DNA from: Stenotrophomonas sp. 610A2
GTDB taxonomy: Bacteria > Pseudomonadota > Gammaproteobacteria > Xanthomonadales > Xanthomonadaceae
NCBI RefSeq assembly: GCF_030549615.1
Contig: NZ_CP130832.1
Coordinates: forward strand, 1,302,001 to 1,366,000
Direction of reading: 5' to 3'
Length of the DNA: 64,000 nucleotides
Shown: positions 16,143 to 28,715 of the stretch, one piece after another
Numbering within the stretch: position 1 is the first letter of the stretch
How the letters are laid out: every line of letters begins with the position of its first letter
Translations under genes and position numbers: made by a program
Notes under the pieces: generated by a model
The model's database searches: none
The model's input: the letters and a program-made list of their open reading frames with translations, nothing else
What the model was told of the DNA's origin: nothing

Positions 16143-16337
16143 ATGAAGAAGTGGATCAAGCGCGTTGTTGCGTGTGGCTTCCTTTCGATGGCTGCCTTTG
16201 GTGGTACGGCCTCGGCCTCATGGTGTGGAACGCCGTGTGTGACGTCGTACAACGCCTGCATTGCGCGCGGTACTGCGCCTGAGAAGTGCGAGGCGATTCT
16301 TGAAGCATGTCTGGAAGGGTTGTGCCCCAATGGCTGA
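16143..16337 (+). CDS. Small secreted cysteine-rich peptide of unknown function
   Basis: 64 residues, start preceded by AAGGAAAG. A typical signal peptide (MKKWIKRVVACGFLSMAAF) ends in ASA before SWCGTP, leaving a mature peptide of about 38 residues with six cysteines spaced C-x3-C-x6-C-x10-C-x6-C-x4-C. This spacing suits three disulfides, possibly in a helical hairpin. I recognise no family. It is monocistronic, with a terminator behind it. A secreted effector, a bacteriocin-like peptide or an envelope structural peptide are all possible. Confidence 0.7.
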   Translation: MKKWIKRVVACGFLSMAAFGGTASASWCGTPCVTSYNACIARGTAPEKCEAILEACLEGLCPNG

Positions 16338-16406
16338 GCATTCCCTGCATCATTGAGGTGAGGGGACAGGCTCGGCATGACGCCGAGTCTTGTCCTCAGA
16401 TAAACG

Positions 16407-16431
16407 AAAGCCGGCCTAGCGTCGGCTTTTT
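16407..16431 (+). terminator. Terminator after the cysteine-rich peptide gene
   Basis: AAAGCCG and CGGCTTT form the stem around GCCTAGCGT, with a T-rich end (CTTTTTCCC). It lies about 70 bp after the stop codon. Confidence 0.7.
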
Positions 16432-16562
16432 CCCATTTCACTCCGCTTTCCGCGCCCGGCAGGCTATCTTTGCCGCGGGTCGCTGGCGACCCATTCATTT
16501 CGCGGTGGTTCCGGCCTGGCGCGGTGCGCTTCCGGGACTGTTGGGTCTTTCAGGAGAGTGAA

Positions 16563-17612
16563 GTGGCAAATGTAGGGAAGCGGCGTCTGGGCAGTGTTGT
16601 GCGTGGCGTCGGTCGGGTCCTGTTGGCGTTCCTGTGTCTGTGCATCGGTATCTGGGGCGGGTTTGCGCTGTGGTACCAGTTCCCCGGCAATGTGGTGGCC
16701 AAGGTCGTGGCGATCCTGGTGTGGTGCGTGCCCAGCATCTGGGCGATCCGCGCGGGTTTCGGGCCGCTGCGGCGCTGGCATTCGCTGGCGGTGTTCGGGG
16801 CGCTGTTTGCGGTGATGCTGATCTGGTGGGCGACCATCGACCCGCAACAGGACCGGGCCTGGGCCGATGACGTGGCGCAGCCGCTGCATGCGCGCATCGA
16901 GGGGGACCGCCTGATCATCGACAACGTGCGCAACTTCCGTTGGCGGACCGAGACCGACTATGACGTGCGCTGGGAAGCGCGCGAGTACGATCTGTCGCAG
17001 GTGCAGTCGGTGGACATGATCCTGTCCTATTGGATGGGCCCGGCGATTGCGCACACGCTGGTGTCGTTCGGTTTTGCCGATGGCCGCCAGCTGGTGTTCT
17101 CGCTGGAGATCCGCAAGGAGCGGGGCGAATCGTTCTCGGCGCTGGGTGGCTTCTTCCGCAAGTTCGAGGCGGTGTTGGTGGCCTCGGATGAGCGCGACAT
17201 CGTGCTGACGCGCAGCAATGTGCGCGGCGAGGATGTCTATCTGTACCGGCTGCATGGGCTGAGCCTGGATAAGATGCGCGATCTGCTGCGCTTCTACGTG
17301 GACCGCGCGCAGCAGCTGGAACAGGCACCGCGCTTCTACAACACGCTGACCAGCAACTGCACCACGGTGGTGTTCGAGCTGATGCGCCGCATCCAGCCCA
17401 ATCTGCCGCTGGATTACCGCCTGCTGGCCTCCGGCTATCTGGCCGAATACGCCGCCGACGTCGGTGGGCTGACCCCGGGCGTGCCGCTGGCGACTCTGCA
17501 ACAATCGGGGCGTATAACGCTGCGTGCACGCGAAGCGGGCGATGTGGCTGATTTCTCTTCCCGGATACGCGCAGGCGTACCCGGCATTCCAGCACCAGGA
17601 ACCAACCCATGA
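16563..17612 (+). CDS. DUF4105 (Lnb N-terminal periplasmic domain) membrane protein
   Basis: 349 residues from a GTG with AGGAG 6 bases upstream (16552-16556); an earlier frame at 16470 lacks a ribosome site. Three hydrophobic segments lie within the first ~90 residues, then a periplasmic DUF4105 domain with WEAREYDLSQVQSVDM and the cysteine motif YNTLTSNCTTVVFELMRR. The Cys fits a papain/NlpC-like catalytic centre. DUF4105 is the N-terminal part of the Lnb lipoprotein transacylase, though stand-alone proteobacterial members have no proven role. It is coupled by ATGA overlap to a lipoprotein hydrolase. Confidence 0.85.
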   Translation: MANVGKRRLGSVVRGVGRVLLAFLCLCIGIWGGFALWYQFPGNVVAKVVAILVWCVPSIWAIRAGFGPLRRWHSLAVFGALFAVMLIWWATIDPQQDRAWADDVAQPLHARIEGDRLIIDNVRNFRWRTETDYDVRWEAREYDLSQVQSVDMILSYWMGPAIAHTLVSFGFADGRQLVFSLEIRKERGESFSALGGFFRKFEAVLVASDERDIVLTRSNVRGEDVYLYRLHGLSLDKMRDLLRFYVDRAQQLEQAPRFYNTLTSNCTTVVFELMRRIQPNLPLDYRLLASGYLAEYAADVGGLTPGVPLATLQQSGRITLRAREAGDVADFSSRIRAGVPGIPAPGTNP

Positions 17613-19570
17613 CCCACACCCCGCAGACATGGATACGCCGGTTGTTGCCGGTGGTCGCGGTAATGGCGCTGCTGCTGTCCAGCGGCTGCGCCATGGTGAA
17701 GATGAAAGCGGTGAGTAACACCGATTACGTGATGCTCAAGCGTGGCGACATCCTCAGCACCGGCAAGCTCAGTGCCTTGTCGCAGGAGTCGCTGTCGGTC
17801 ATCGGCTTGACCGAAAGTGACTGCAGCAAGGACCTGCCGACCTGCCGGCAGACGGTGGCCACCAACGACGGCCTGCAGTCCGAGCAGCGCCTGTCCACGC
17901 TGGCCGAGCTGTGGATGCAGCAGGCCTTGGCGCTCACTCCCAAAGCCAAGGGCAACGAGCCCATCGAGCTGCCGCCGGCGGCGCTGGATGCCTGGCTGGA
18001 AACCGCACGCTATTCCTATCTCTACCTGTTCTTCAGTGGCCGCAGCCCGGCGCAGCGCGCCCTGGAAGACCGGCTTACCCAGGTGCGGGATTACTACAAC
18101 TACGCCACCGAGCAGGCGGCCTCGGTGGTGTTCCAGCGTACGCGTGCGCGCGCGCTGGAAGGGCAGGACATTACCCTGCCGGTGCAGGTGGACAACTGGA
18201 CCATCAGCACGAAGTTCGATGAGCTCAAGTTCGAGGGTGTGCCCAGGCAACTGGTAGCTGCATCCTCGGTGAGTTTTGCCGGGCTGCGCAGTTCCTACCG
18301 TCGCGATGGCTTCGGTGCCGAGCTGGTGGCGATGATGGAAGCGCCAGCGCTGGCGCAGGCGATTGAAGTTGAAGAACGCAAGCAAAACCTCCCGGTTTAC
18401 AGCGAGATGCCCGCGGTCAACGTGACCGCTGTGCTGAACTTCAGCGGCAATACGCTGGAAGAAATACTGGCAACCCGGCAGGTGCAGTTGGAGGCTTATT
18501 CGCCCGACCTCAGCAGCATCCAGATGCGCGGCCAGGAAGTGCCGCTGGCGGCCAACTTCACTGCCGCCTACGGCCTGTGGCTTGCCCAATCCGGCTTCGC
18601 CACAGAATCACTGCGCACCTTGTTCGGCCGTGGCGAAGGCATCCGTGAGCCGCATATCTACCTGATGCAGCCCTACGATCCGAACAAGCGCATCATCTTC
18701 ATGTTGCATGGCCTGGCCAGCAGCCCGGAGGCCTGGGTGAACCTGGCCAACGAGATCATGGGCGACGAGGAAATGCGCGAGCATTACCAGGTGTGGTCGG
18801 TGTATTACCCGACCAATGCGCCGATCGCCTTGAACCGGTACACCATCAGCAAGGCCTTCAACAGCACGCTGCATCACTTCGATCCCAAGGGCACGGCGCC
18901 GGCATCGCACGACATGGTGTTCATTGGCCACAGCATGGGCGGGGTGATCGCGCGGCTGATGCTCAGTGACTCGGGCGATGTGCTGTGGGAAAACACCCGC
19001 CAGCGCTACAACCTGCAGGGCGAGCGCTTGGCGCGGGTCGAAGCCAAGCTCGGGCCGGTGCTGCATTTTACTCCGCAGCCGAATGTGGAGCGGGCGATTT
19101 TCCTGGCCTCACCGCACAAGGGCACGGATGCGGCCGGCAACCGGCTCGGCCGTTTGATCGGCAGGCTGGTGCGCTTGCCGCTGACGATTCTTGGTGCCTT
19201 TGGCGACGCCTTCATGGCGCTGCAGGACCCGGGCGAAGCTGATGGCAAGAAGCCCAAGGAACCGGTGATCACCAACAGCATCGAGAACCTGAAGGCCAGT
19301 GATCCCTTCATCGAGGCGTCCTCGGCGCTGCCCATCCAACCGGGCCTGAAGTACCACTCGATCATCGCCAAGCGCAAAGCCGAGGTGCCGACTGCGCAGT
19401 CCGACGATGGGCTGGTGCCGTACTGGAGCGCGCATCTGGATGGTGCGCTGTCGGAGAAGGTGATCGTGTCCGGCCACAGCGTGCAGGAAACGCCGGAAGC
19501 GGTGCTGGAAGTGCGCCGCATCCTGCGCCAGGACCTGCTGGAAGTGGAAGGCGTGGACGCTGCGCACTGA
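17609..19570 (+). CDS. Outer-membrane or periplasmic alpha/beta-hydrolase lipoprotein
   Basis: 653 residues. The signal peptide ends in the lipobox LSSGC, so Cys27 is the lipidated residue. An all-helical N-terminal half of unknown type (to about 340) precedes an alpha/beta-hydrolase domain: oxyanion region MLHGLASSPEAW, nucleophile Ser442 in GHSMGG, a possible acid in SDDGLVPYW and His in VSGHSVQETPEAV. A lipase or esterase role is likely; the substrate is unknown. The start overlaps the DUF4105 stop by 4 bases, so the two probably work together in the envelope. Confidence 0.85.
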   Translation: MTHTPQTWIRRLLPVVAVMALLLSSGCAMVKMKAVSNTDYVMLKRGDILSTGKLSALSQESLSVIGLTESDCSKDLPTCRQTVATNDGLQSEQRLSTLAELWMQQALALTPKAKGNEPIELPPAALDAWLETARYSYLYLFFSGRSPAQRALEDRLTQVRDYYNYATEQAASVVFQRTRARALEGQDITLPVQVDNWTISTKFDELKFEGVPRQLVAASSVSFAGLRSSYRRDGFGAELVAMMEAPALAQAIEVEERKQNLPVYSEMPAVNVTAVLNFSGNTLEEILATRQVQLEAYSPDLSSIQMRGQEVPLAANFTAAYGLWLAQSGFATESLRTLFGRGEGIREPHIYLMQPYDPNKRIIFMLHGLASSPEAWVNLANEIMGDEEMREHYQVWSVYYPTNAPIALNRYTISKAFNSTLHHFDPKGTAPASHDMVFIGHSMGGVIARLMLSDSGDVLWENTRQRYNLQGERLARVEAKLGPVLHFTPQPNVERAIFLASPHKGTDAAGNRLGRLIGRLVRLPLTILGAFGDAFMALQDPGEADGKKPKEPVITNSIENLKASDPFIEASSALPIQPGLKYHSIIAKRKAEVPTAQSDDGLVPYWSAHLDGALSEKVIVSGHSVQETPEAVLEVRRILRQDLLEVEGVDAAH

Positions 19571-19578
19571 GCCTGTGG

Positions 19579-19596
19579 CGGGCTGCGTGCAGCCCG
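19579..19596. terminator. Possible terminator between convergent genes
   Basis: CGGGCTGC, loop GT, GCAGCCCG: an 8-bp perfect stem in the 102-bp gap between the hydrolase lipoprotein and the convergent MFS gene. There is no T run. Confidence 0.35.
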
Positions 19597-19672
19597 GGCA
19601 ATGGATCAGGCCGGAGAGCGTCGCGCTGAGCTGCGACGCAGGAGATAGCTGAGCTGCGTGATCGAGCGCTGC

Positions 19673-21034
19673 TCAGCCGATGCGGCGACCAACCACGGTT
19701 GCCAATCCGGCCAACAGCAGGGTCACCACGAAGCACAGCAGATAGCCGGTGGTTTCATTGCCGCCGACCGTTGTGGCAAACAGCGAGCCGGAGATCGCCA
19801 GCGTCGATGCCACCGCGATGCCTTCGCTCAGCTGCAAGGCCGAGCTGTTTGCACCTTGCTCGTGCGGCGCCGACAGTGACAAGGTCAGCACCGACAGGCT
19901 GGGGTAGATCAGGCCCATGCCCAGCCCGGTCAGCGCCCAGCCGGCAAGCGCCAGCATCAAGGGCACGCCCGGATACAGCGTGAGCACGGAAATCAGCAGG
20001 CCTGCCAGCATCAGCCAGGTGCCGGCCTGCAGCATGTGAGTGCGGCGCCAACCGAAGTGCTGGTGGCCTTGCATCCATGAGCCGGAGAACCAGCCCAGCG
20101 CACCCAGGCTGAGCGCTGCGCCGGCCCACAGCGGTGACAGGTCGCGCTCGCGCTGCAGCAGCAATGGCAGGAAGGCTTCGGCGCCAAAGAAGGCCGACGC
20201 GGCAATGCCACGCAAGGCGATCACGCTGGGCAGGCCGCGGCGCAGCAGCAAGCTGCCGCTGGGCAGCAGATGACGCGCGCAGAAAATCAAAGCGATCACT
20301 GCCACCGTCATCACCGCCAGCGCCTGCATGCCCTGCAGCTGTCCGCCGACATACAGCAACAGCGCGGCCAGCGCCGTGCCTATCGCCCAGCGCACCACTG
20401 GCCGCTGCTCGACATCGCGACGGATGCTGGTTTGGGTACTGCGCAAGGCCGGCAACAGCAGCCAGGCCGCCGGCAAGGCCAACACCGGCACGATGAGGAA
20501 GACCCAGCGCCAGCTCAGGTGCTGCACGATCAGTCCGCTCAGGCTTGGGCCGATCAGCGAGGGCACCACCCAGCCAGCGGAGAAGGCTGCGAATACCTTG
20601 GGGCGCAGCGCTTCCGGATAGGTGCGCGCAACCAGCACATACAGCGACACCGAGATCGCGCCGATGCCGACGCCCTGTAGCAGGCGGCCGACGATCAATA
20701 CATCCATGCGCGGCGCCAAACCGGCCAGCAGCAGGCCAATCAGGAAGCTGCCCAGGCCCAGCCACAACGGTCGTGCCGGACCTTGCTGGTCGCACATGCG
20801 GCCGGCCAGGGTCATGCCGATCACGCTGGTGGCCAGTGCACCGCCGAAGGCCAGCGCGTACAGGCGTAGTCCGTCCAAGGCCTCGGCCACGCTCGGCATT
20901 GCGGCGGCCACGGCCAGCGCCTCGAAGGCGATCAGCGAGATCAGCGCAACCATTCCGAAGGTGGTAGCACGGTACTGCGGGGCGAGGATGGAGGTGCTTG
21001 CCGGCGGGGCCGAGGCGATGCTTTGGGAACTCAT
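19673..21034 (-). CDS. MFS transporter, probably a SoxR-controlled drug or redox-compound exporter
   Basis: 453 residues with about 14 hydrophobic segments. An early motif, MCDQQGPARPLWLG, matches the cytoplasmic loop 2-3 signature of the major facilitator superfamily in degenerate form. Proton-driven export of toxic compounds is the commonest role of this group. The start MSSQSIA at 21034 fits best; the frame extends to 21082. Its promoter region contains a SoxR-type palindrome shared with the divergent soxR gene, so redox-cycling drugs are a likely inducer class. Confidence 0.85.
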   Translation of the reverse strand: MSSQSIASAPPASTSILAPQYRATTFGMVALISLIAFEALAVAAAMPSVAEALDGLRLYALAFGGALATSVIGMTLAGRMCDQQGPARPLWLGLGSFLIGLLLAGLAPRMDVLIVGRLLQGVGIGAISVSLYVLVARTYPEALRPKVFAAFSAGWVVPSLIGPSLSGLIVQHLSWRWVFLIVPVLALPAAWLLLPALRSTQTSIRRDVEQRPVVRWAIGTALAALLLYVGGQLQGMQALAVMTVAVIALIFCARHLLPSGSLLLRRGLPSVIALRGIAASAFFGAEAFLPLLLQRERDLSPLWAGAALSLGALGWFSGSWMQGHQHFGWRRTHMLQAGTWLMLAGLLISVLTLYPGVPLMLALAGWALTGLGMGLIYPSLSVLTLSLSAPHEQGANSSALQLSEGIAVASTLAISGSLFATTVGGNETTGYLLCFVVTLLLAGLATVVGRRIG

Positions 21035-21082
21035 GATGCGACGCTGCTGCTTGAGTTGCGGCTGGGGGGCGTGCAGCATCAC

Positions 21083-21102
21083 ACCTCAACCATGGTTGAG
21101 GT
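21083..21102. promoter_or_regulatory. SoxR-type operator between MFS gene and soxR
   Basis: A perfect 20-bp palindrome, ACCTCAACC / GGTTGAGGT around AT, keeps the CCTCAA...TTGAGG arms known from SoxR sites. On the minus strand it sits between a TTGACC -35 (21105-21100) and a weak GATGCT -10 with 19-bp spacing, the overlong spacer typical of MerR-family activated promoters. The plus-strand edge is 3-6 bp from the soxR start, suggesting autorepression. Confidence 0.82.
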
Positions 21103-21108
21103 CAAGTG

Positions 21109-21543
21109 ATGTCCACGCGGGAACTGAGTGTAGGTGAAGTGGCCAAGCGCAGCGGTGTTGCGGTATCGGCCTTGCACTTCTATGAGCGCAAGGGACTGAT
21201 CCGGAGCCAGCGCACCGCCGGTAACCAGCGGCGATTCCAGAGTGATGTGCTGCGTCGGCTGGCGTTGATCCAGGCCGCACAGCGGGTGGGCATGCCGCTG
21301 CAGGCGGTGGCCGAGCGCCTGGCGGAACTGCCGGAAGGGCGCGCGCCCACAAAGGCTGACTGGGCGAAGATGTCCGCGCGCTGGCGCAAGGAGCTGGATG
21401 AGCGCATCGCGACATTGCAGTTCATGCGCGACCAGCTCAGCGATTGCATTGGCTGCGGTTGCCTGTCGTTGAAGCGCTGCGGCCTGCTGAATCCGCAGGA
21501 CGTGCTGGGGCAGCGAGGCGAAGGCCCGCAACGCGTGGGCTAG
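21109..21543 (+). CDS. soxR: Redox-sensitive MerR-family regulator SoxR
   Basis: 144 residues from the ATG at 21109 (a GTG sits directly before it). The N-terminal winged helix VGEVAKRSGVAVSALHFYE is MerR-type. A dimerisation helix is followed by the [2Fe-2S] cluster motif CIGCGCLSLKRC, with Cys113, Cys116, Cys118 and Cys124 spaced as in E. coli SoxR. Oxidation of the cluster switches on target promoters. No soxS is nearby; as in Pseudomonas, SoxR probably acts directly on exporters, here the divergent MFS gene. Confidence 0.96.
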   Translation: MSTRELSVGEVAKRSGVAVSALHFYERKGLIRSQRTAGNQRRFQSDVLRRLALIQAAQRVGMPLQAVAERLAELPEGRAPTKADWAKMSARWRKELDERIATLQFMRDQLSDCIGCGCLSLKRCGLLNPQDVLGQRGEGPQRVG

Positions 21544-21606
21544 CGTTGCGAGACGGGATAGGCAAGCTGCCGGGTATCGGACGACACGCCAGCAGTGCAT
21601 GCTGCC

Positions 21607-21629
21607 CGGGCCACGGTGCGTGGCCCGGA
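21607..21629. terminator. Bidirectional hairpin between convergent soxR and roadblock gene
   Basis: CCGGGCCACG, loop GTG, CGTGGCCCGG: a perfect 10-bp stem midway between the two convergent stop codons. No T run on either side. Confidence 0.5.
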
Positions 21630-21633
21630 TGCA

Positions 21634-22041
21634 TCAGATTTCCGCTTCGATCGCCGGCATCGCCAGACGCGAGCGGGTCAGTACCATGCCGAGGTTGGCG
21701 GTGCGGCGGCAGACGAACACCATCACGTAGTCCGGGTAGCGCTTGCCGCGCATGAAGACGTGGATCAGGTTTTCGCTGTTGACGATGATTTCCTGGAAGT
21801 AATGTGCGCCTTCCTGGTCTTCCAGGCCGCGTGCGCGGCGGAACATCTGCTCGATGCTGCGGATGTTCGGGCCCTGGTACAGATCGGCGGTAGCCGCGGC
21901 GACCAGATCCAGCACTTCGCGCGGATGCGAATCCACGGTGCGTACCGACAGCAGCATGCCGGAGCTGATATCGACGTAGCCGGCGGCCACGCATTCGGGG
22001 ATGGAGGCAACGGATTGCTGCAGGGTGGTGTCGAGCGACAT
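21634..22041 (-). CDS. Roadblock/LC7-like small protein
   Basis: 135 residues from the ATG at 22041, which has AAGGA 7 bases upstream. The pattern AAGYVDISSGMLLSVRTV, then a helix, then YFQEIIVNSENLIHVFMRG and DYVMVFVCRRTANLGMVL resembles the roadblock/profilin-like fold, members of which regulate small GTPases or scaffold kinases. The assignment is from sequence pattern only. It lies 83 bp downstream of the ABC-phosphatase fusion in the same direction, so they are probably co-transcribed and may form one module. Confidence 0.6.
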   Translation of the reverse strand: MSLDTTLQQSVASIPECVAAGYVDISSGMLLSVRTVDSHPREVLDLVAAATADLYQGPNIRSIEQMFRRARGLEDQEGAHYFQEIIVNSENLIHVFMRGKRYPDYVMVFVCRRTANLGMVLTRSRLAMPAIEAEI

Positions 22042-22124
22042 GGGGGAATCCTTGCGGAAGGGGGGAGAAAAGGAATAGCGATGCCCGCAGGCCGCAGTGC
22101 GACCCGGCATCACTCAGGGGTTGA

Positions 22125-23534
22125 TCAATCGCAGGCGCGTATCAGCAGGTTTTCTTCCAGTGCATGCAGCAGGTCTTCCTGCTCCTGCGACTGCACGAAA
22201 CCCGGGTCCAAGGTGCGCAGGCGGCGCAGCGCTTCATCGGCGGTGAGCCCTTCGCGGATCAGCCACGCGGCCAACACCATGCCGGTGCGGCCAAGGCCGG
22301 CCAGGCAGTGCACGGCGACGACTTCGCCTTCGCGCAACATCACCTCGATCTTGGCCAGCAGCAGCTTGGCCCACAGCAAGGGCGGTGCGCCGCGGTCAAC
22401 GATGCCCAGGTGGTAGCTGCGCAGACCGAAAGCTGCCAAGCGTTCAGCCGACATCTCGCGTTCGGTGAGGTTGACCAGCATGGTCACGCCCATGCCACGC
22501 AGCAAGGCCAGATCGTGATCTATGGCGAATACCACGCCGGGCATCGGGCAGCCGGCGAGCTTGCCCGGCACCAGCCAGTGGAAGCCATTGGGGCCGCGCC
22601 GTGAGGGCGTGGCGGAAAGACGGACTGGTGCAGGTGTAGATGCTGGCAACGGACGAGCAATGGAAGTCTCGGCTGCGGCGCCGACAGCTCGGCCTGGTGA
22701 TTTCTCAGCGATGACAACTGGTGCAGGCGCGGCCACACCATCGGCCAGTTCCTCGGGACGTGCATCCGGTGCCGGTACATGGCAGCTGCCGGTGCGCAGG
22801 AACTGCGCCAGCACAGCGTGCTGCCCGCGATTGGCAAAGAAGGCCTCCACGGGTGCATCAACCTGTATCTGGCCGCCGGCCAGCAGAATCACCCGCGAAG
22901 CGATACGTCGGGCCTGGCCTTGATGGTGCAGGCTGACCAGGCAGCAGTGCGTGGCGGACAGGCGCTCTATCAGTGTGAGCACGGCTTCGGCGTCGGTCGA
23001 CTCCAGTTCGCTGGTCGGCTCGTCGATCAATAGCAGCGGACTGCCGCTGAAGGCGGCGCGCAGGATGGCGACCTGGCGGGCGAGTCCGCGCGGCAGGTCG
23101 ATCACCCGCTGCTGCAGATGCGCGGCTACAGCGGTGGCGCCCAGGGCCTGCAGGCGCGCGTCGATCTGTTCGCGCAATGCCTGTGGCTTGTTGCCTGATT
23201 GCGGGCGCAGCGCGGCGCTGAGGTTCTCCAGTACGCTGAAGCCAAGTTCGCGTGCGTGTTGTTGGACCAAAACCGGCGGTTGGGTCGTGTTGGCCAGCGG
23301 CTTGCCCTGGAACAGCAACGTGCCCCAGCGCTCGCCATGTGCATTGCTTTGCCCGGACAGCGCCTGCAGCAACGAGGACTTGCCGGTGCCGCCCGGGCCC
23401 ATCAACACCACGATGCCGGTACCGCTGATGCTCAGATCAATAGATGCCAACACAGTGCGTTGGCCACGGCGCATGCCCCAGCCTTGCAGCTGCAGCAACG
23501 GAGTAGGGGAGTTGTGGACTGGCAAGTACGTCAC
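22125..23534 (-). CDS. Fusion of an ABC-type ATPase and a dual-specificity (tyrosine) phosphatase
   Basis: 469 residues, GTG start. Residues 10-245 form an ABC nucleotide-binding domain: Walker A GPGGTGKS (46-53), Walker B LLLIDEP (167-173) and an H-loop at His203. The signature motif is degenerate, DLPRGLARQ instead of LSGGQ. A Pro/Ala-rich linker (about 250-315) leads to a cysteine phosphatase domain, with general acid Asp380 in GIVDRGAPP and the P-loop HCLAGLGRTG (Cys410, Arg416). No membrane-spanning part or permease gene is near, so it is probably a soluble signalling protein. Both domains look active; the combination is unusual and its role is unknown. Confidence 0.85.
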   Translation of the reverse strand: MTYLPVHNSPTPLLQLQGWGMRRGQRTVLASIDLSISGTGIVVLMGPGGTGKSSLLQALSGQSNAHGERWGTLLFQGKPLANTTQPPVLVQQHARELGFSVLENLSAALRPQSGNKPQALREQIDARLQALGATAVAAHLQQRVIDLPRGLARQVAILRAAFSGSPLLLIDEPTSELESTDAEAVLTLIERLSATHCCLVSLHHQGQARRIASRVILLAGGQIQVDAPVEAFFANRGQHAVLAQFLRTGSCHVPAPDARPEELADGVAAPAPVVIAEKSPGRAVGAAAETSIARPLPASTPAPVRLSATPSRRGPNGFHWLVPGKLAGCPMPGVVFAIDHDLALLRGMGVTMLVNLTEREMSAERLAAFGLRSYHLGIVDRGAPPLLWAKLLLAKIEVMLREGEVVAVHCLAGLGRTGMVLAAWLIREGLTADEALRRLRTLDPGFVQSQEQEDLLHALEENLLIRACD

Positions 23535-23807
23535 TCTGCCCGTCGCAAACCCGTTTCTGGGGCCTGCGCGGAATTGGAAAGGCGGTCAGTATGGTTTGTG
23601 TTAATTCCATGTCAATTTGACTTTGTGATGTGCGCGCGCAGGCTGCATCAGACGCGCAGGCAGCGACCTGTTCGCAGCTGCGCGGTCATATCAAATTGAT
23701 TGGGAAAGGAAATGCGTGCATTTCCGGCAGCGTTGCAAACGCCATTTCCAACGACGAATACGGCGTTGGAGCGCTGAACAAGACGATGCTTATTGTTTCA
23801 GCGGGAT

Positions 23808-24269
23808 TCAGAAATTCCGCTCGAAACCCACGTTTCCTGCGCCTGCATCTGCAGTGATCTGCAGGTCGATGCGCAGTTGATCGCGCGGATGTGCATCGAG
23901 TACGCCGATCAGATCTGTGTACTCGCCGGTACGCACGGCACGCAATTCAATCTGCTGACGTTTGCCGGAGAGATCGGTGGCGACGGCCTGCACCTTGCCG
24001 TCTGTTGGCAGTTCTTCGCCTTGCGCGAGTTGCCGCAGGGCGACCACCAGCAGTGCGCGGTCGGCTTCGCGCTGCACCTGATAGCTGCGTGCCACGGCAT
24101 CGTTCATCGCCAGCGTTGGCAGCAGGTTGTAGTGCACGCGCAGCTTGCCGAGGTCGGTGTGGCTGGGTTGCGCTTGTTGGATGACGGCTGCGCGCGGGGA
24201 GGGCTCTGCGGAACAGGCGGCGAGGGTAAGCAGCAGGGTGGAGGACAGCGTTAGGGCGAACCGGGGCAT
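23808..24269 (-). CDS. DUF4426 domain-containing lipoprotein
   Basis: 153 residues. The signal peptide ends in LAAC, so Cys19 is a lipidation site. The mature part has LGKLRVHYNLLPTLAM and SYQVQREADRALLVVAL, the DUF4426 pattern. The family is often found near proC/yggS in gammaproteobacteria, and that neighbourhood is kept here, though a repeat-filled gap separates it from proC. Function unknown. The start at 24269 is chosen to give a proper signal peptide; the frame is open further upstream to 24392. Confidence 0.8.
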   Translation of the reverse strand: MPRFALTLSSTLLLTLAACSAEPSPRAAVIQQAQPSHTDLGKLRVHYNLLPTLAMNDAVARSYQVQREADRALLVVALRQLAQGEELPTDGKVQAVATDLSGKRQQIELRAVRTGEYTDLIGVLDAHPRDQLRIDLQITADAGAGNVGFERNF

Positions 24270-24343
24270 GGTGTTGGTGTCCTTGGGCTGTGGTGTTGGA
24301 TTGGGCTTTTTTGATTGCTTGAAAGCTACAAGGCTTCGCCTTG

Positions 24344-24460
24344 CCCCTCTCCCGAACCCCCGCTCCGCGCCCCGGCCCTTGCGCCAGCGCAAGGGCGTTC
24401 GATGGGCAGCGAACCGGCGGTTCGCAAGCTGCCCCTCTCACCCCACAAGGGGAGAAGGGC
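24344..24460. repeat. ~115-bp dispersed repeat, copy 1
   Basis: A compound palindromic element containing CCCCGGCCC, a GCGCCAGCGC hairpin, a GCGAACC/GGTTCGC stem and a terminal pyrimidine-rich/purine-rich stem. The same succession, diverged in places, occurs at 62602-62716. It separates proC from the DUF4426 gene. Confidence 0.75.
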
Positions 24461-24495
24461 TTGGTATTGCGTGCAACTTGCAGCGTTCTTGCTGC

Positions 24496-25341
24496 TCAAT
24501 CGTTCGCTGCAGACAGTTCCTTGCCGCGTTTCGCCGCAGCATCAATGGCGCGCGCTGTCAGTGCTTCAAAGCCGCCGGCCTGGAAGGTTTCTATCGCTGC
24601 CTGGGTTGTGCCGCCCGGCGAGGTGACGCGGCGACGTAGTTCGGCCGGGGCTTCGCCGGCTTCGGTCAGCATCCGTGCGGCGCCGAGGACGGTTTCGAGT
24701 ACCAGTGTGCGTGCCGCGTCCGCCGGCAGGCCTTGTTCCAGTGCAGCGGCTTCCATCGCTTCGGCCAGCAGGAAAATATAGGCCGGGCCGCTGCCGGAGA
24801 CGGCGGTCACTGCGTCCATCTGTGCTTCGTCATCGATCCAGACGGTGCGGCCGGCGCTGGCAAGCAGCTGTTCGGTCTGCGAGCGCTGGGCAGCGGACAC
24901 GCGCGGATTGGCGAACAGGCCGGTGACGCCTGCGCCCAATAGGGCGGGAGTGTTGGGCATGGCACGGACGACGGCCTGGTTGCCGCCGAGCCAGCGCTCC
25001 AACTGTGCGGCGGTGATGCCGGCGGCGATCGATGCGACTACCGGTTGCTGGCTGGCGGCAACCGGACTCAGTGCTTCGCAGACCGAGCGCATCACCTGCG
25101 GCTTGACCGCCATCAGCCATAGTCCGGCATGCGCCGCGGCGGCTTCAGCGGCGTTGTAGGTATGCACGCCGAAGTCCTGCGCCAGCGCCTCGCGCAGGGC
25201 GGCGACCGGTTCGGCGACATGGATGCGGCTGGCGGCCATGCCGCGACGCAGCAAACCAGCGATCAGGCTGCGCGCCATGTTGCCGCCGCCGATGAAGGCG
25301 ACATCTGTGTCGGGGAGGTCTGGGTGCATGTTGCTGGTCAT
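24496..25341 (-). CDS. proC: Pyrroline-5-carboxylate reductase
   Basis: 281 residues, last step of proline synthesis (reduces pyrroline-5-carboxylate with NAD(P)H). The N-terminal Rossmann motif is VAFIGGGNMARSLIAGL. VRAMPNTPALLGAGVTGL is the substrate-side signature, and AVSGSGPAYIFLLAEAM plus VTSPGGTTQAAIETF are the ProC C-terminal hallmarks. The start MTSNMHPD at 25341 is preferred; MHPD at 25329 is possible. yggS is directly upstream (19-bp gap), the usual yggS-proC operon. Confidence 0.96.
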   Translation of the reverse strand: MTSNMHPDLPDTDVAFIGGGNMARSLIAGLLRRGMAASRIHVAEPVAALREALAQDFGVHTYNAAEAAAAHAGLWLMAVKPQVMRSVCEALSPVAASQQPVVASIAAGITAAQLERWLGGNQAVVRAMPNTPALLGAGVTGLFANPRVSAAQRSQTEQLLASAGRTVWIDDEAQMDAVTAVSGSGPAYIFLLAEAMEAAALEQGLPADAARTLVLETVLGAARMLTEAGEAPAELRRRVTSPGGTTQAAIETFQAGGFEALTARAIDAAAKRGKELSAAND

Positions 25342-25360
25342 CAATCCGATCTCACTGCGA

Positions 25361-26032
25361 TCAAGGGGTGGGGCGCTGGCCGAACAAGGCGGTGCCGACC
25401 CGGACCATGGTCGAGCCGGCGGCGATGGCTTCGGCAAAGTCACTGCTCATGCCCATCGAAAGTGTATCGACCCGCGGGTGGTGCGCGGCCAGATCGGTAA
25501 ACAAGGCCTGCATCCGCGCGAACGCGGCCTGCCGCTTGGCCGCTTCCGGGAACGGTGCCGGGATCGCCATCAGGCCGCGCAGGCAGAGCCGCGGTTCGCC
25601 AGCGATGGCTTCGGCCAAGGCGTTTACCTGCTCCGGGGCGCAGCCGTGCTTGCTGTCCTCGTCGTCGATGTTGACCTGGATCAGCACGTTGAGGGGGGGC
25701 AAAGCGGACGGGCGGGCCTTGGCCAAAGCGGTGACCAGCTTGCCCCGGTCAACGGTCTGCACCCAGTCGAAGACCTGTGCGGCCAGCTCGGCCTTGTTGG
25801 ACTGCAGGTGGCCGATCAGGTGCCACTCCAGGCCCAGCCCGGCCAGCTCGGTGATCTTGGCGGCAGCCTCCTGCACATAGTTTTCACCAAAGGCGCGCTG
25901 TCCTTGGGCGGCCAGGCCGGCCACCGCCGCTGCCGGCTGCAGCTTGGAAACGGCCAGCAGGCGGACCGCCCGGGAGGGGCTGGAAGCAGCGTCGATCTGC
26001 TGGCGGAGGGTGGCTAAAGGTACCGTTTGCAA
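25361..26032 (-). CDS. yggS: Pyridoxal phosphate homeostasis protein (YggS/PLPBP)
   Basis: 223 residues from a TTG start with AGAGG 9 bases upstream; no ATG fits. It is a single-domain alanine-racemase-like barrel that binds PLP through Lys30 in AVSKLQP. Other family blocks are FGENYVQEA, WHLIGHLQSNK, SMGMSSDFAEAI and VRVGTALFG. It balances the B6 vitamer pool and has no known enzymatic activity. It is co-oriented with proC and divergent from pilT, with 86 bp between the starts. Confidence 0.95.
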   Translation of the reverse strand: MQTVPLATLRQQIDAASSPSRAVRLLAVSKLQPAAAVAGLAAQGQRAFGENYVQEAAAKITELAGLGLEWHLIGHLQSNKAELAAQVFDWVQTVDRGKLVTALAKARPSALPPLNVLIQVNIDDEDSKHGCAPEQVNALAEAIAGEPRLCLRGLMAIPAPFPEAAKRQAAFARMQALFTDLAAHHPRVDTLSMGMSSDFAEAIAAGSTMVRVGTALFGQRPTP

Positions 26033-26058
26033 AACATCAACCTCTTACGTGGGAAGGC

Positions 26059-26064
26059 TATACT
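26059..26064 (+). promoter_or_regulatory. Candidate -10 element for pilT
   Basis: TATACT 55 bp before the pilT ATG, in the yggS-pilT divergent gap. No good -35 at standard spacing, so this is tentative. No sigma-54 -24/-12 pair is seen. Confidence 0.35.
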
Positions 26065-26118
26065 GCCCGCCAGGGGAAACACCTTACATATACTCGCAAC
26101 GCAGGGGACAGAGCGCGT

Positions 26119-27156
26119 ATGGATATCGCTGAACTTTTGGCGTTCTCGGTCAAGAACAAGGCCTCGGACCTCCACCTCTCCGCTGGCCTGCCGCCGATGA
26201 TCCGCGTGGACGGTGACGTCCGTCGCATCAACATCCCGGCCCTGGACCACAAACAAGTGCACGCGCTGGTGTACGACATCATGTCGGACAAGCAGCGTCG
26301 TGATTACGAAGAATTCCTCGAGGTCGACTTCTCGTTCGAGATTCCCTCGCTGGCGCGCTTCCGTGTCAACGCGTTCAACCAGAACCGCGGTGCCGGTGCG
26401 GTGTTCCGTACCATTCCCTCGGAAGTGCTGACGCTGGAAGACCTGGCCTGCCCGCCGATCTTCCGTGAGTTGATCGAACAGCCGCAGGGTCTGATCCTGG
26501 TCACCGGCCCGACCGGTTCGGGCAAGTCGACCACGCTGGCGGCGATGATCGACCACATCAACAAGAACGAATACGGTCACATCCTCACCGTCGAGGATCC
26601 GATCGAATTCGTGCACACCTCGCAGAAGTGCCTGATCAACCAGCGCGAAGTGCACCGCGATACGCACGGCTTCAACGAAGCACTGCGTTCGGCCTTGCGT
26701 GAAGACCCGGACATCATCCTGGTCGGCGAATTGCGTGACCTTGAGACCATCCGCCTGGCACTGACCGCGGCAGAAACCGGTCACCTGGTGTTCGGCACCC
26801 TGCATACCAGCTCGGCGGCCAAGACCATCGACCGTATCATCGACGTGTTCCCGGCCGGCGAAAAGCCGATGGTGCGCTCGATGCTGTCCGAGTCGCTGCG
26901 TGCGGTCATCTCGCAGGCACTGCTCAAGCGCGTTGGTGGTGGCCGTGTGGCCTCGCACGAAATCATGGTGGCAACACCGGCTATCCGTAACCTGATCCGC
27001 GAAGACAAGGTGGCGCAGATGTACTCGTCCATCCAGACCGGCCAGCAGGTGGGCATGCAGACGCTGGACCAGAACCTGCAGGATCTGGTCAAGCGCAGTC
27101 TGGTCACGCGCAACCAGGCCAAGGAATACGCCAAGGACAAGCGTCTGTTCGAGTAA
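26119..27156 (+). CDS. pilT: Type IV pilus retraction ATPase PilT
   Basis: 345 residues. It powers pilus depolymerisation for twitching and DNA uptake. Walker A GPTGSGKS is at 130-137, followed by the Asp box (ILTVEDPIEF), Walker B (IILVGELRDLETI) and His box (TGHLVFGTLHT). The C-terminal AIRNLIREDK block, needed for retraction in PilT proteins, is intact. The N-terminal PAS-like part starts MDIAELLAFSVKNKASDLHL. pilU follows after 112 bp. Confidence 0.98.
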   Translation: MDIAELLAFSVKNKASDLHLSAGLPPMIRVDGDVRRINIPALDHKQVHALVYDIMSDKQRRDYEEFLEVDFSFEIPSLARFRVNAFNQNRGAGAVFRTIPSEVLTLEDLACPPIFRELIEQPQGLILVTGPTGSGKSTTLAAMIDHINKNEYGHILTVEDPIEFVHTSQKCLINQREVHRDTHGFNEALRSALREDPDIILVGELRDLETIRLALTAAETGHLVFGTLHTSSAAKTIDRIIDVFPAGEKPMVRSMLSESLRAVISQALLKRVGGGRVASHEIMVATPAIRNLIREDKVAQMYSSIQTGQQVGMQTLDQNLQDLVKRSLVTRNQAKEYAKDKRLFE

Positions 27157-27268
27157 TTCCAGGTTTCGGGATTAGAGATTCGGAATTCGGGATTCGCAAA
27201 AGCCGGAATCGACGGGGCGCCGTGGAGTCATCCCACGCCCTGTCCCGGCTCTCCATCGGGAGCCAGAC

Positions 27269-28399
27269 ATGAGCACTATTGATTTCACCTCGTTCCTCAA
27301 GCTGATGGCGCACCAGAAGGCGTCGGACCTTTTCATCACCGCCGGCATGCCGCCGTCGATGAAGGTCAACGGCAAGCTGTCACCGATCACCCAGACACCG
27401 CTGACGGCGCAGCAAAGCCGCGACATGGTGCTCAACGTGATGACGCCGTCGCAGCGCGAGGAATTCGAGAAAACCCACGAATGCAACTTCGCCATCGGCG
27501 TCTCCGGCGTGGGTCGCTTCCGTGTGAGCTGCTTCTACCAGCGCAACCAGGTGGGCATGGTGCTGCGTCGCATCGAGACGCGCATTCCCACCGTGGAAGA
27601 GCTGAACCTGCCGCCGGTGATCAAGACGCTGGCGATGACCAAGCGCGGCATCATCCTGTTCGTCGGCGCCACCGGTACCGGCAAGTCGACCTCGCTGGCA
27701 GCGATGATCGGCTACCGCAACCAGAACTCGACCGGCCACATCATCACCATCGAAGACCCGATCGAATTCGTGCACAAGCATGAAGGCTGCATCGTGACCC
27801 AGCGCGAAGTCGGCATCGATACCGACAGCTGGGAAGCGGCGTTGAAGAACACGCTGCGGCAGGCGCCGGACGTGATCATGATCGGCGAAATCCGTACCCG
27901 CGAGGGCATGGATCACGCGGTTGCGTTCGCTGAAACCGGTCACCTGGTGCTGGCCACGCTGCATGCCAACAACGCCAACCAGGCGATGGATCGCATCATC
28001 AACTTCTTCCCGGAAGATCGCCGCAATCAGCTGTTGATGGATCTGTCGCTGAACCTGAAGGGTGTGGTCGCGCAGCAGCTGGTGCCGACCCCGGACGGCA
28101 AGAGCCGCCGCGTGGCGATGGAAATCCTGCTGGGCACGCCGCTGGTGCAGGACTACATCCGCGATGGCGAAGTGCACAAGCTGAAGGAAGTGATGAAGGA
28201 TTCCGTGCAGTTGGGCATGAAGACCTTCGACCAGAGCCTGTTCGAGCTGTACCAGGCCGGCGAGATCAGCTACGACGACGCCTTGCGTTACGCCGACTCG
28301 CAGAACGAGGTGCGCCTGCGCATCAAGCTGTCGCAGGGCGGTGATGCCAAGACCTTGTCGCAGGGTCTGGACGGCGTGGAGATTGCCGAGGTTCGCTGA
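27269..28399 (+). CDS. pilU: PilT-dependent accessory retraction ATPase PilU
   Basis: 376 residues, a PilT paralogue with a longer C-terminus. Walker A GATGTGKS is at 133-140, with IITIEDPIEFVHKHEGC, VIMIGEIRTREGM and TGHLVLATLHANNANQAMDR. The last LGTPLVQDYIRDGEVHKLKE and an extended tail distinguish PilU from PilT. PilU adds force to PilT-driven retraction. The start is preceded by GGGAGCCAGAC. It shares the orientation of pilT and is followed by a strong terminator. Confidence 0.97.
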   Translation: MSTIDFTSFLKLMAHQKASDLFITAGMPPSMKVNGKLSPITQTPLTAQQSRDMVLNVMTPSQREEFEKTHECNFAIGVSGVGRFRVSCFYQRNQVGMVLRRIETRIPTVEELNLPPVIKTLAMTKRGIILFVGATGTGKSTSLAAMIGYRNQNSTGHIITIEDPIEFVHKHEGCIVTQREVGIDTDSWEAALKNTLRQAPDVIMIGEIRTREGMDHAVAFAETGHLVLATLHANNANQAMDRIINFFPEDRRNQLLMDLSLNLKGVVAQQLVPTPDGKSRRVAMEILLGTPLVQDYIRDGEVHKLKEVMKDSVQLGMKTFDQSLFELYQAGEISYDDALRYADSQNEVRLRIKLSQGGDAKTLSQGLDGVEIAEVR

Positions 28400-28421
28400 G
28401 TCTGGCGGGTTTGGTGGTTTG

Positions 28422-28456
28422 AAAAGCCGCTCCTTTTTGGGGCGGCTTTTTTGTTT
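28422..28456 (+). terminator. Terminator after pilU
   Basis: AAAAGCCGC and GCGGCTTTTTT arms around TCCTTTTTGGG, with a long T tract. A strong intrinsic terminator 22 bp after the stop codon. Confidence 0.92.
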
Positions 28457-28463
28457 TGGGGGC

Positions 28464-28680
28464 AAGAGCAAGATCAACAGCAAGATCAAGAGCACCCCTC
28501 CCGAACCCTCCCCTTCGCTGCGCGAAAGGGAGGGGCCAGAGCCAGAGCCAAAGCGAAAGGGAAAGCGAAAGCAGAAGCCGAAATCCAGGCTGAGGCCGCT
28601 CTTCCCCCTCCCTTTCGCGTAGCGAAGGGGAGGGCCGGGGAGGGGTGCTCTTGCTCTTGCTCTCGCTTTTGCTATTGCTC
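28464..28680. repeat. Long fold-back repeat with two opposed GC hairpins
   Basis: Two CCCTCCC/TTCGC-type hairpin elements face each other (28494-28535 inverted, 28604-28646). Outside them are complementary low-complexity runs: GAGCAAGATCAA-like on the left, TTGCTCTTGCTCTCGC on the right. Between them is a purine-rich run of AAAGCGAAA-type repeats. The whole stretch can fold back on itself. No gene is seen in the 316-bp gap. Confidence 0.7.
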
Positions 28681-28715
28681 CCAGCTCCCGCTCAACTCAA
28701 TAGCATCCTGGCAAT

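What the first reader, a model, noticed from the sequence alone, without database searches (positions are those of the whole stretch)
21634..23534. ABC ATPase fused to a dual-specificity phosphatase, with a roadblock-like partner
One 469-residue frame joins a complete ABC nucleotide-binding domain (Walker A GPGGTGKS, Walker B LLLIDEP, degenerate signature DLPRGLARQ) to a cysteine phosphatase domain with both the P-loop HCLAGLGRTG and a general-acid Asp. No permease is fused or adjacent. A roadblock-like gene, of a fold that often regulates NTPases, follows 83 bp downstream. An ATPase, phosphatase and scaffold together suggest a soluble signalling module whose switch and target are unknown.
Basis: partly seen in the sequence, partly recalled or inferred. 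Interest (0 to 1): 0.75.

Follow-up and report, generated by a model that had tools for sequence, protein, structure and literature searches.

The report
Roadblock-paired ABC-ATPase/phosphatase signalling module
A bacterial protein that joins an ATP-binding switch to a protein phosphatase is nearly always encoded next to an unusually conserved roadblock-fold protein, and in some relatives the pair sits inside a small-GTPase operon of the kind linked to cell polarity and pili, so it looks like an overlooked soluble signalling module.

Summary
Window 22125-23534(-) is one open frame: ABC nucleotide-binding domain, disordered linker, complete Cys-phosphatase domain. Key ATP-site and phosphatase residues are kept in 39-40 of 40 aligned fusions, but the LSGGQ glycine pair in none. 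The partner R (21634-22041) matches no Pfam family, yet its model is roadblock-fold. In 79 of the 80 best R loci the fusion or a piece of it lies beside R, in either gene order. In 18 of 80 a small GTPase is there too; 21 of 80 match a ferredoxin-globin profile. More distant R proteins sit with an unrelated metallophosphoesterase (9 of 11 hand-picked contexts; 12 of 25 small loci). The window's pair lies near pilT-pilU, as in a second clade. Best reading: an ATP-gated phosphatase controlled by R, working in or derived from MglA/MglB-type signalling, with type IV pili or surface motility the likeliest output. Fold, linkage and residues are shown; binding, gating, substrate and output are inferred.

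The parts
22125..23534 (-). ABC ATPase - dual-specificity phosphatase fusion, 469 aa (GTG start)
   Evidence: Open frame; Pfam hits; AlphaFold mean pLDDT 88.4 with a stretch under 50 at residues 280-311
22785..23507 (-). ABC nucleotide-binding domain (residues about 10-250)
23376..23399 (-). Walker A GPGGTGKS (residues 46-53)
   Evidence: G46, G51, K52, S53 in 40 of 40 aligned fusions
23019..23024 (-). Walker B D171-E172
   Evidence: 40 of 40
22599..22784 (-). Linker (residues 251-312), preceded by the conserved QFLRTGSC stretch
   Evidence: G249 40 of 40, C251 34 of 40; pLDDT under 50 at 280-311
22128..22598 (-). Cys-based dual-specificity phosphatase domain (residues 313-469)
   Evidence: phmmer of residues 310-469: 3.1e-23 to PDB 25xa, 4.6e-18 to DUSP23 4erc
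22395..22397 (-). General-acid Asp380
   Evidence: 40 of 40; the role is assigned from family knowledge
22281..22310 (-). Phosphatase P-loop HCLAGLGRTG (residues 409-418)
   Evidence: H409, C410, G413, G415, R416, T417, G418 in 40 of 40
21634..22041 (-). R: divergent roadblock-fold protein, 135 aa (ATG start)
   Evidence: No Pfam match; roadblock fold; fusion or a piece of it beside R in 79 of 80 loci
26119..28399 (+). Context only: pilT (26119-27156) and pilU (27269-28399), divergent from yggS-proC-DUF4426 gene-fusion-R
   Evidence: Pfam T2SSE for both (the names pilT and pilU are recalled). Relatives of both near R in 15 of 80 loci, in two clades of the tree

Best explanation
The pair is a soluble phospho-signalling switch. 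The ABC domain binds ATP, and ATP-driven pairing or opening, together with binding of an R dimer, controls the attached phosphatase, which removes phosphate from a protein of the polarity or type IV pilus system. In some relatives it works inside a small-GTPase operon of MglA/MglB type, often with a ferredoxin-globin protein as a possible gas or redox input. In the window's lineage the pair has no GTPase beside it and lies near pilT-pilU, while two GTPase/roadblock gene sets lie elsewhere in the genome. Shown: domain identity, catalytic residues, lost LSGGQ glycines, roadblock fold of R, near-obligate R-fusion linkage, GTPase-operon context, recurrence of a phosphatase gene near R. Inferred: that R binds the fusion, that R forms dimers, that ATP gates the phosphatase, that the substrate is a protein, that the GTPases are MglA-type, and that the output is type IV pili or surface motility.
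For: Fusion conserved. Key residues kept in 39-40 of 40, LSGGQ glycine pair in 0 of 40. Linkage in 79 of 80 loci; 72 of 72 scored pairs on one strand, 55 as fusion-R and 17 as R-fusion; adjacency that survives a swap of gene order argues for function. R changes slowest: median pairwise identity 68%, against 42% fusion, 48% GTPase, 42% canonical roadblock (11 GTPase-bearing loci chosen of 18; roadblock in 10). GTPase in 18 of 80 loci, of which 15 have a canonical roadblock and 14 a match to the winged-helix-type protein. Divergent R with a metallophosphoesterase: 9 of 11 larger contexts, 12 of 25 small loci; none of the 11 has the fusion, and the five R loci of that search with the fusion show no metallophosphoesterase within 1.5 kb. 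pilT-pilU relatives near R in two separate clades. PilO, a type IVa pilus marker, in 46 of 47 R-bearing genomes tested and 244 of 321 class genomes; Fisher p 1.8e-4, not corrected for kinship.
Against: No interaction or activity was measured and no complex was modelled. No GTPase lies beside the pair in the window, and 6 of 24 pair-only genomes tested have no match to the cassette GTPase. The window genome has no match to the globin chimera. The genome of L145, a Myxococcales MAG, has R and a fusion but no PilO match. In Ruegeria plasmids R lies with dynamin genes and no fusion. L125 has R without the fusion. In one Marinobacter locus the second fusion copy (L138:6591-7958) has Gln where His409 stands. 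2 of 11 divergent-R contexts have neither phosphatase nor GTPase. yggS, proC, pilT and pilU are neighbours also in genomes without the pair, so the site may simply tolerate insertions. R-bearing genomes are related and were chosen by hand.
Confidence: 0.5

Rival explanations
1. Same module, but the output is not pili: a gas or redox-sensing pathway (ferredoxin-globin input) acting on transcription or metabolism; the pilT neighbourhood is incidental.
For: Ferredoxin-globin profile matched in 21 of 80 loci, 11 with and 10 without a GTPase; four of them, plus two earlier relatives, Pfam-checked. Genome-wide a strong match (E 1e-50 or better) is in 8 of 9 GTPase-cassette genomes and 4 of 24 pair-only genomes (Fisher p 2.8e-4 without correction for kinship). 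A protoglobin, an ODP-family protein and a two-globin protein lie within some kb of divergent R genes. Weak winged-helix hits, below Pfam's cut-off, in one cassette protein.
Against: The window genome has no match, and of nine other pair-bearing Stenotrophomonas genomes only one has the globin part; the pilT-pilU neighbourhood occurs in two clades.
Confidence: 0.25
2. The ABC domain is the ATPase of a real transporter whose permease is encoded elsewhere, and the phosphatase domain regulates uptake.
For: The NBD resembles importer ATPases and MlaF.
Against: No permease adjacent in the window; LSGGQ glycine pair in 0 of 40; linkage to roadblock and GTPase genes is not a habit of transport operons (general knowledge).
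Confidence: 0.1
3. A toxin or phage-defence element; sources name some relatives 'phosphatase domain-containing putative toxin'.
For: Names; best Pfam match is Tc-R-P, a polymorphic-toxin phosphatase; patchy distribution, R in 9 of 149 family genomes; the fusion has PADLOC hits, best mad3 9.2e-13.
Against: No delivery domain found; the PADLOC stretches all lie in the ABC part; R has no match in 50,697 phage records; R is strongly conserved, unlike most immunity proteins (general knowledge).
Confidence: 0.05

Closest known systems
Group 3 MglA systems (Wuichet and Sogaard-Andersen, PMC4316618)
   Same: Cassettes in relatives hold comparable parts: a protein with a possible C-terminal winged helix, a small GTPase and MglB-like roadblock proteins (passages, and section 18). 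Passages of PMC11112851 say group 3 mglA occurs in Stenotrophomonas and Xanthomonas.
   Different: In that text the word 'phosphatase' occurs 0 times and section 18 describes no ABC-phosphatase gene; its supplements were not seen. The window's pair has no adjacent GTPase or canonical roadblock.
MglA/MglB/MglC polarity module of Myxococcus
   Same: R has the fold of MglB and MglC; that module controls type IV pili (starts of abstracts of PMC9481161 and PMC7519303).
   Different: Identity only about 11-24% in structural alignments; GTPase binding not tested; no ABC-phosphatase there as far as recalled.
Streptomyces conservons (CvnA-D)
   Same: Roadblock protein, small GTPase and further regulators in one operon (start of abstract of PMC13343842).
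   Different: Conservons have a histidine-kinase-like CvnA; none was seen as a regular part of the 18 GTPase-bearing loci.
MlaF-MlaB
   Same: Precedent, recalled, for a small soluble protein that binds and regulates an ABC ATPase; MlaF is among the best fold matches.
   Different: MlaB is a STAS protein and MlaF serves a membrane transporter (recalled).
DUSP23 / atypical dual-specificity phosphatases
   Same: Phosphatase domain matches DUSP23 at 4.6e-18 with Cys, Arg and acid Asp.
   Different: Here fused behind an ABC ATPase, a pairing not met in the listings.

Membership tests
Roadblock/LC7 (Robl_LC7, PF03259) | Roadblock fold | tested here: met
Roadblock/LC7 (Robl_LC7, PF03259) | Sequence match to the Pfam profile | tested here: not met
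   No family at E up to 1; in the own-genome PF03259 search two other loci match and R does not; hhalign with 7 canonical relatives gives 47.8% probability
ABC-type ATPase | Walker A, Walker B with catalytic Glu, Q-loop, H-loop | tested here: met
   K52, D171, E172, H203 40 of 40; Q92 39 of 40
ABC-type ATPase | LSGGQ signature | tested here: not met
   Gly pair at 149-150 in 0 of 40; Ser148 with Gly150 in 1 of 40
ABC transporter | Permease fused or adjacent | tested here: not met
   None among the ORFs of 17000-28000 or in the Pfam scans; an unlinked permease cannot be excluded
Dual-specificity phosphatase | CX5R P-loop, general acid, family sequence match | tested here: met
   D380, C410, R416 40 of 40
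Dual-specificity phosphatase | Activity on phosphoproteins | not testable with these tools
   Needs an assay
Group 3 MglA system | Adjacent GTPase and MglB-like protein in the window | tested here: not met
   Absent beside the pair; such genes lie elsewhere in the genome
Group 3 MglA system | Same parts around relatives of the pair | tested here: inconclusive
   GTPase in 18 of 80 loci, 15 of them with canonical roadblock, 14 with the winged-helix-type protein; the GTPases were not placed in an MglA tree and the receiver-like half was not tested
Polymorphic toxin (Tc-R-P) | Delivery domains ahead of a C-terminal toxin | tested here: not met
   Only ABC/ATPase and phosphatase families in the 25 listed of 28 Pfam hits

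The most novel reading that the evidence does not exclude
R defines an unrecognised roadblock family whose constant business is to control a phosphatase in small-GTPase signalling. Two unrelated phosphatases fill the same place: a Cys phosphatase fused to an ABC ATPase in beta- and gammaproteobacteria, and a calcineurin-like metallophosphoesterase in more distant lineages. Together with the globin and pilus links this would be a general phosphatase arm of bacterial MglA-type polarity and energy-taxis signalling, with the ABC domain acting as an ATP timer rather than a transport motor.
Probability: 0.35. Interest if true: 0.85.

Novelty: new variant of a known kind. Interest (0 to 1): 0.65.

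Why it matters
MglA-type GTPases and their roadblock partners set polarity and pilus placement in Myxococcus, but in most bacteria little is known of what they talk to. A conserved phosphatase and an ATPase in the same operons gives a concrete, testable arm: what is dephosphorylated, and does ATP binding time it. The recurrence of two unrelated phosphatases near R would make that arm general. R also shows that a roadblock family can be missed by current sequence profiles.

Tried and rejected
Defence or phage origin: PADLOC hits lie in the ABC part; PHROGs gave two ABC-transporter families (best 2e-28), one of unknown function over the ABC part, and a weak one labelled thymidylate synthase over residues 374-457 (4.7e-6); R had no phage match. 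Recent foreign origin by base composition: GC 64.9% against 64.1% for the window. Sequence route to roadblock: Pfam, NCBIfam and PDB profile searches failed, so the fold was used. Print: no paper on the fusion or R was seen in the listings; these cover open-licence PMC texts, and searches listed 19 of 20, 12 of 84 and 15 of 42 papers. Only passages and one section of PMC4316618 and passages of PMC11112851 were read; other papers were seen as listings.

What counts rest on: one search kept the best 80 of 228 R loci; the loci are oriented and cut by contig ends. PilO was tested in genomes of 47 and the GTPase and globin in genomes of 33 of the 80, chosen by hand for lineage and contig length (the globin search added the window genome and four others). 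The 40 rows of A3 and 39 of A4 were hand-picked. L134 (cut) and L145 (1192 aa) were left out of the tree. One GTPase sequence read in the wrong frame (L065) was left out of the profile. The winged-helix-type profile joined two groups that I judged alike by eye. L098 has a full-length, open fusion by tblastn that my ORF step missed; why was not found out. One ferredoxin-globin hit (L109) is cut at a contig end and shows only the ferredoxin. R queries at 21634-22044 carried one codon upstream of the ATG. The 11 divergent-R contexts are hand-picked from the 30 loci. Foldseek and VIA rows for the fusion are filled by the ABC domain, so the phosphatase rests on sequence and model confidence. Gene names pilT, pilU, yggS and proC are recalled; one search gives Pfam families that fit them.

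Full report

IS IT INTACT. In an alignment of 40 fusions, window included, K52, D171, E172, H203, D380, C410 and R416 are kept in 40 of 40 and Q92 in 39 of 40. The two glycines of LSGGQ are found in 0 of 40. ATP binding and phosphatase chemistry are therefore expected, but the usual transporter-type sandwich is doubtful (inference). Exceptions seen outside these 40: the second Marinobacter copy L138:6591-7958 has Gln for His409, and L080 looks split into two overlapping frames.

THE PAIR IS NEAR-OBLIGATE. A scan of genome contigs with R confirmed 228 relatives, of which the best 80 were kept. A frame matching both fusion domains was scored in 72, a phosphatase piece in 3 and nothing in 5. A tblastn check of these eight found the fusion beside R in all but L125: six pieces at contig ends and one full-length open copy in L098. 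That makes 79 of 80. All 72 scored pairs are on one strand, 55 as fusion-R and 17 as R-fusion.

OPERON CONTEXT. In 18 of 80 loci a small GTPase is present; 15 of the 18 also have a canonical roadblock and 14 the winged-helix-type protein, most often in the order winged-helix type, GTPase, fusion, R, roadblock (examples Marinobacter, Halospina, Derxia, Pseudomaricurvus). Wuichet and Sogaard-Andersen describe Group 3 MglA systems as a receiver-like/winged-helix protein, MglA and one or two MglB (PMC4316618, section 18); 'phosphatase' occurs 0 times in that text. A ferredoxin-globin profile matches in 21 of 80 loci, 11 with and 10 without a GTPase; four of them were Pfam-checked. In a tree of 72 fusions a 52-row clade (SH-aLRT 100) holds all rows without a GTPase nearby except L143 and the second Marinobacter copy; GTPase presence needs 3 changes (quick method, with long branches flagged).

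A SECOND PHOSPHATASE. A phylum-wide search found R relatives in 35 of 398 genomes. Twelve larger contexts were fetched: one (L197) has the fusion. Of the 11 with divergent R (55-77 bits), 9 hold a protein with a calcineurin-like phosphoesterase half (Pfam-checked in three), 8 a GTPase match (one weak), and none the fusion; L190 and L191 have neither. In the 25 small divergent-R loci of the same search, 12 show the phosphoesterase and 18 a canonical roadblock within about 1.5 kb. The five loci with close R (199 bits or more, window included) have the fusion and no phosphoesterase within that distance. R was also found in five Ruegeria plasmids at 36-39% identity; in one, Pfam shows four dynamin-family proteins and a protein kinase around it, and a second shows the same annotated order. 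In one genome of the window's family a distant R lies with a GTPase-like protein and an ABC ATPase without a phosphatase domain.

THE WINDOW'S OWN CASE. Here the pair has no local GTPase. The genome has two GTPase/roadblock loci elsewhere. The pair follows yggS, proC and a DUF4426 gene beside divergent pilT-pilU. Relatives of pilT-pilU lie near R in 15 of 80 loci, in two separate clades, Stenotrophomonas/Frateuria and Hydrogenophaga/Rhodoferax, needing 2 changes on the tree (L134 not in it), with opposite order of R and fusion. Four other genomes of the window's genus keep yggS-proC on one side and merR-MFS on the other with no pair between. PilO occurs in 46 of 47 R-bearing genomes and in 244 of 321 class genomes, which include a few R-bearing ones; Fisher p 1.8e-4 ignores kinship.

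LIMITS. Of 24 pair-only genomes 6 have no GTPase match, and in several others the match is weak (E about 1e-14); all 9 GTPase-cassette genomes match. So the pair can work without this GTPase or uses a more distant one. The globin goes with the GTPase cassette rather than with the pair: 8 of 9 against 4 of 24 genomes at E 1e-50 or better, and none in the window genome. No activity, binding or complex was tested. The pilus link rests on position and co-occurrence only.

VERDICT. A real, conserved module, not described in the papers searched. Best filed as a new variant of MglA/MglB-type roadblock signalling with an ATPase-phosphatase arm.

Noticed in passing
L157:2901-14209 (Ruegeria plasmid): An R relative among four dynamin-family genes, two proteins without a Pfam family and a protein kinase; a second Ruegeria plasmid (L158) shows the same annotated order.
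   Followed up: partly
L145:4325-7903: In a Myxococcales MAG the fusion frame is 1192 aa, with an N-terminal extension and, by eye, two ABC domains, the second with a degraded Walker A.
   Followed up: no
L055:5034-7765: GTPase-like protein, distant R (27% identity) and an ABC ATPase without a phosphatase domain in a row.
   Followed up: partly
L189, L192-L196, L198-L200: Divergent R relatives near a protein whose C-terminal half is a calcineurin-like phosphoesterase (Pfam-checked in L189, L192, L194) and whose N-terminal half has no Pfam match and looks kinase-like by eye.
   Followed up: partly
L123:9008-10600, L138:15197-16057 and 19 further loci: A ferredoxin-globin chimera with an HHW motif and a C-terminal cysteine cluster recurs near the module.
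   Followed up: partly
L064:6761-9306 and L065:7883-9071 (window genome): Two unlinked GTPase/roadblock gene sets, the first with a 318-aa protein between them that resembles the cassette winged-helix-type protein.
   Followed up: partly
window 28323-28691: Frame rich in Ser-Lys repeats after pilU; a similar one lies in L064 at 16328-16729.
   Followed up: no
window 21600-24400: The stretch between proC and merR is a variable site: in two same-genus genomes looked at (L152, L154) a LysR-type gene (Pfam-checked in L152) and another frame stand there.
   Followed up: partly
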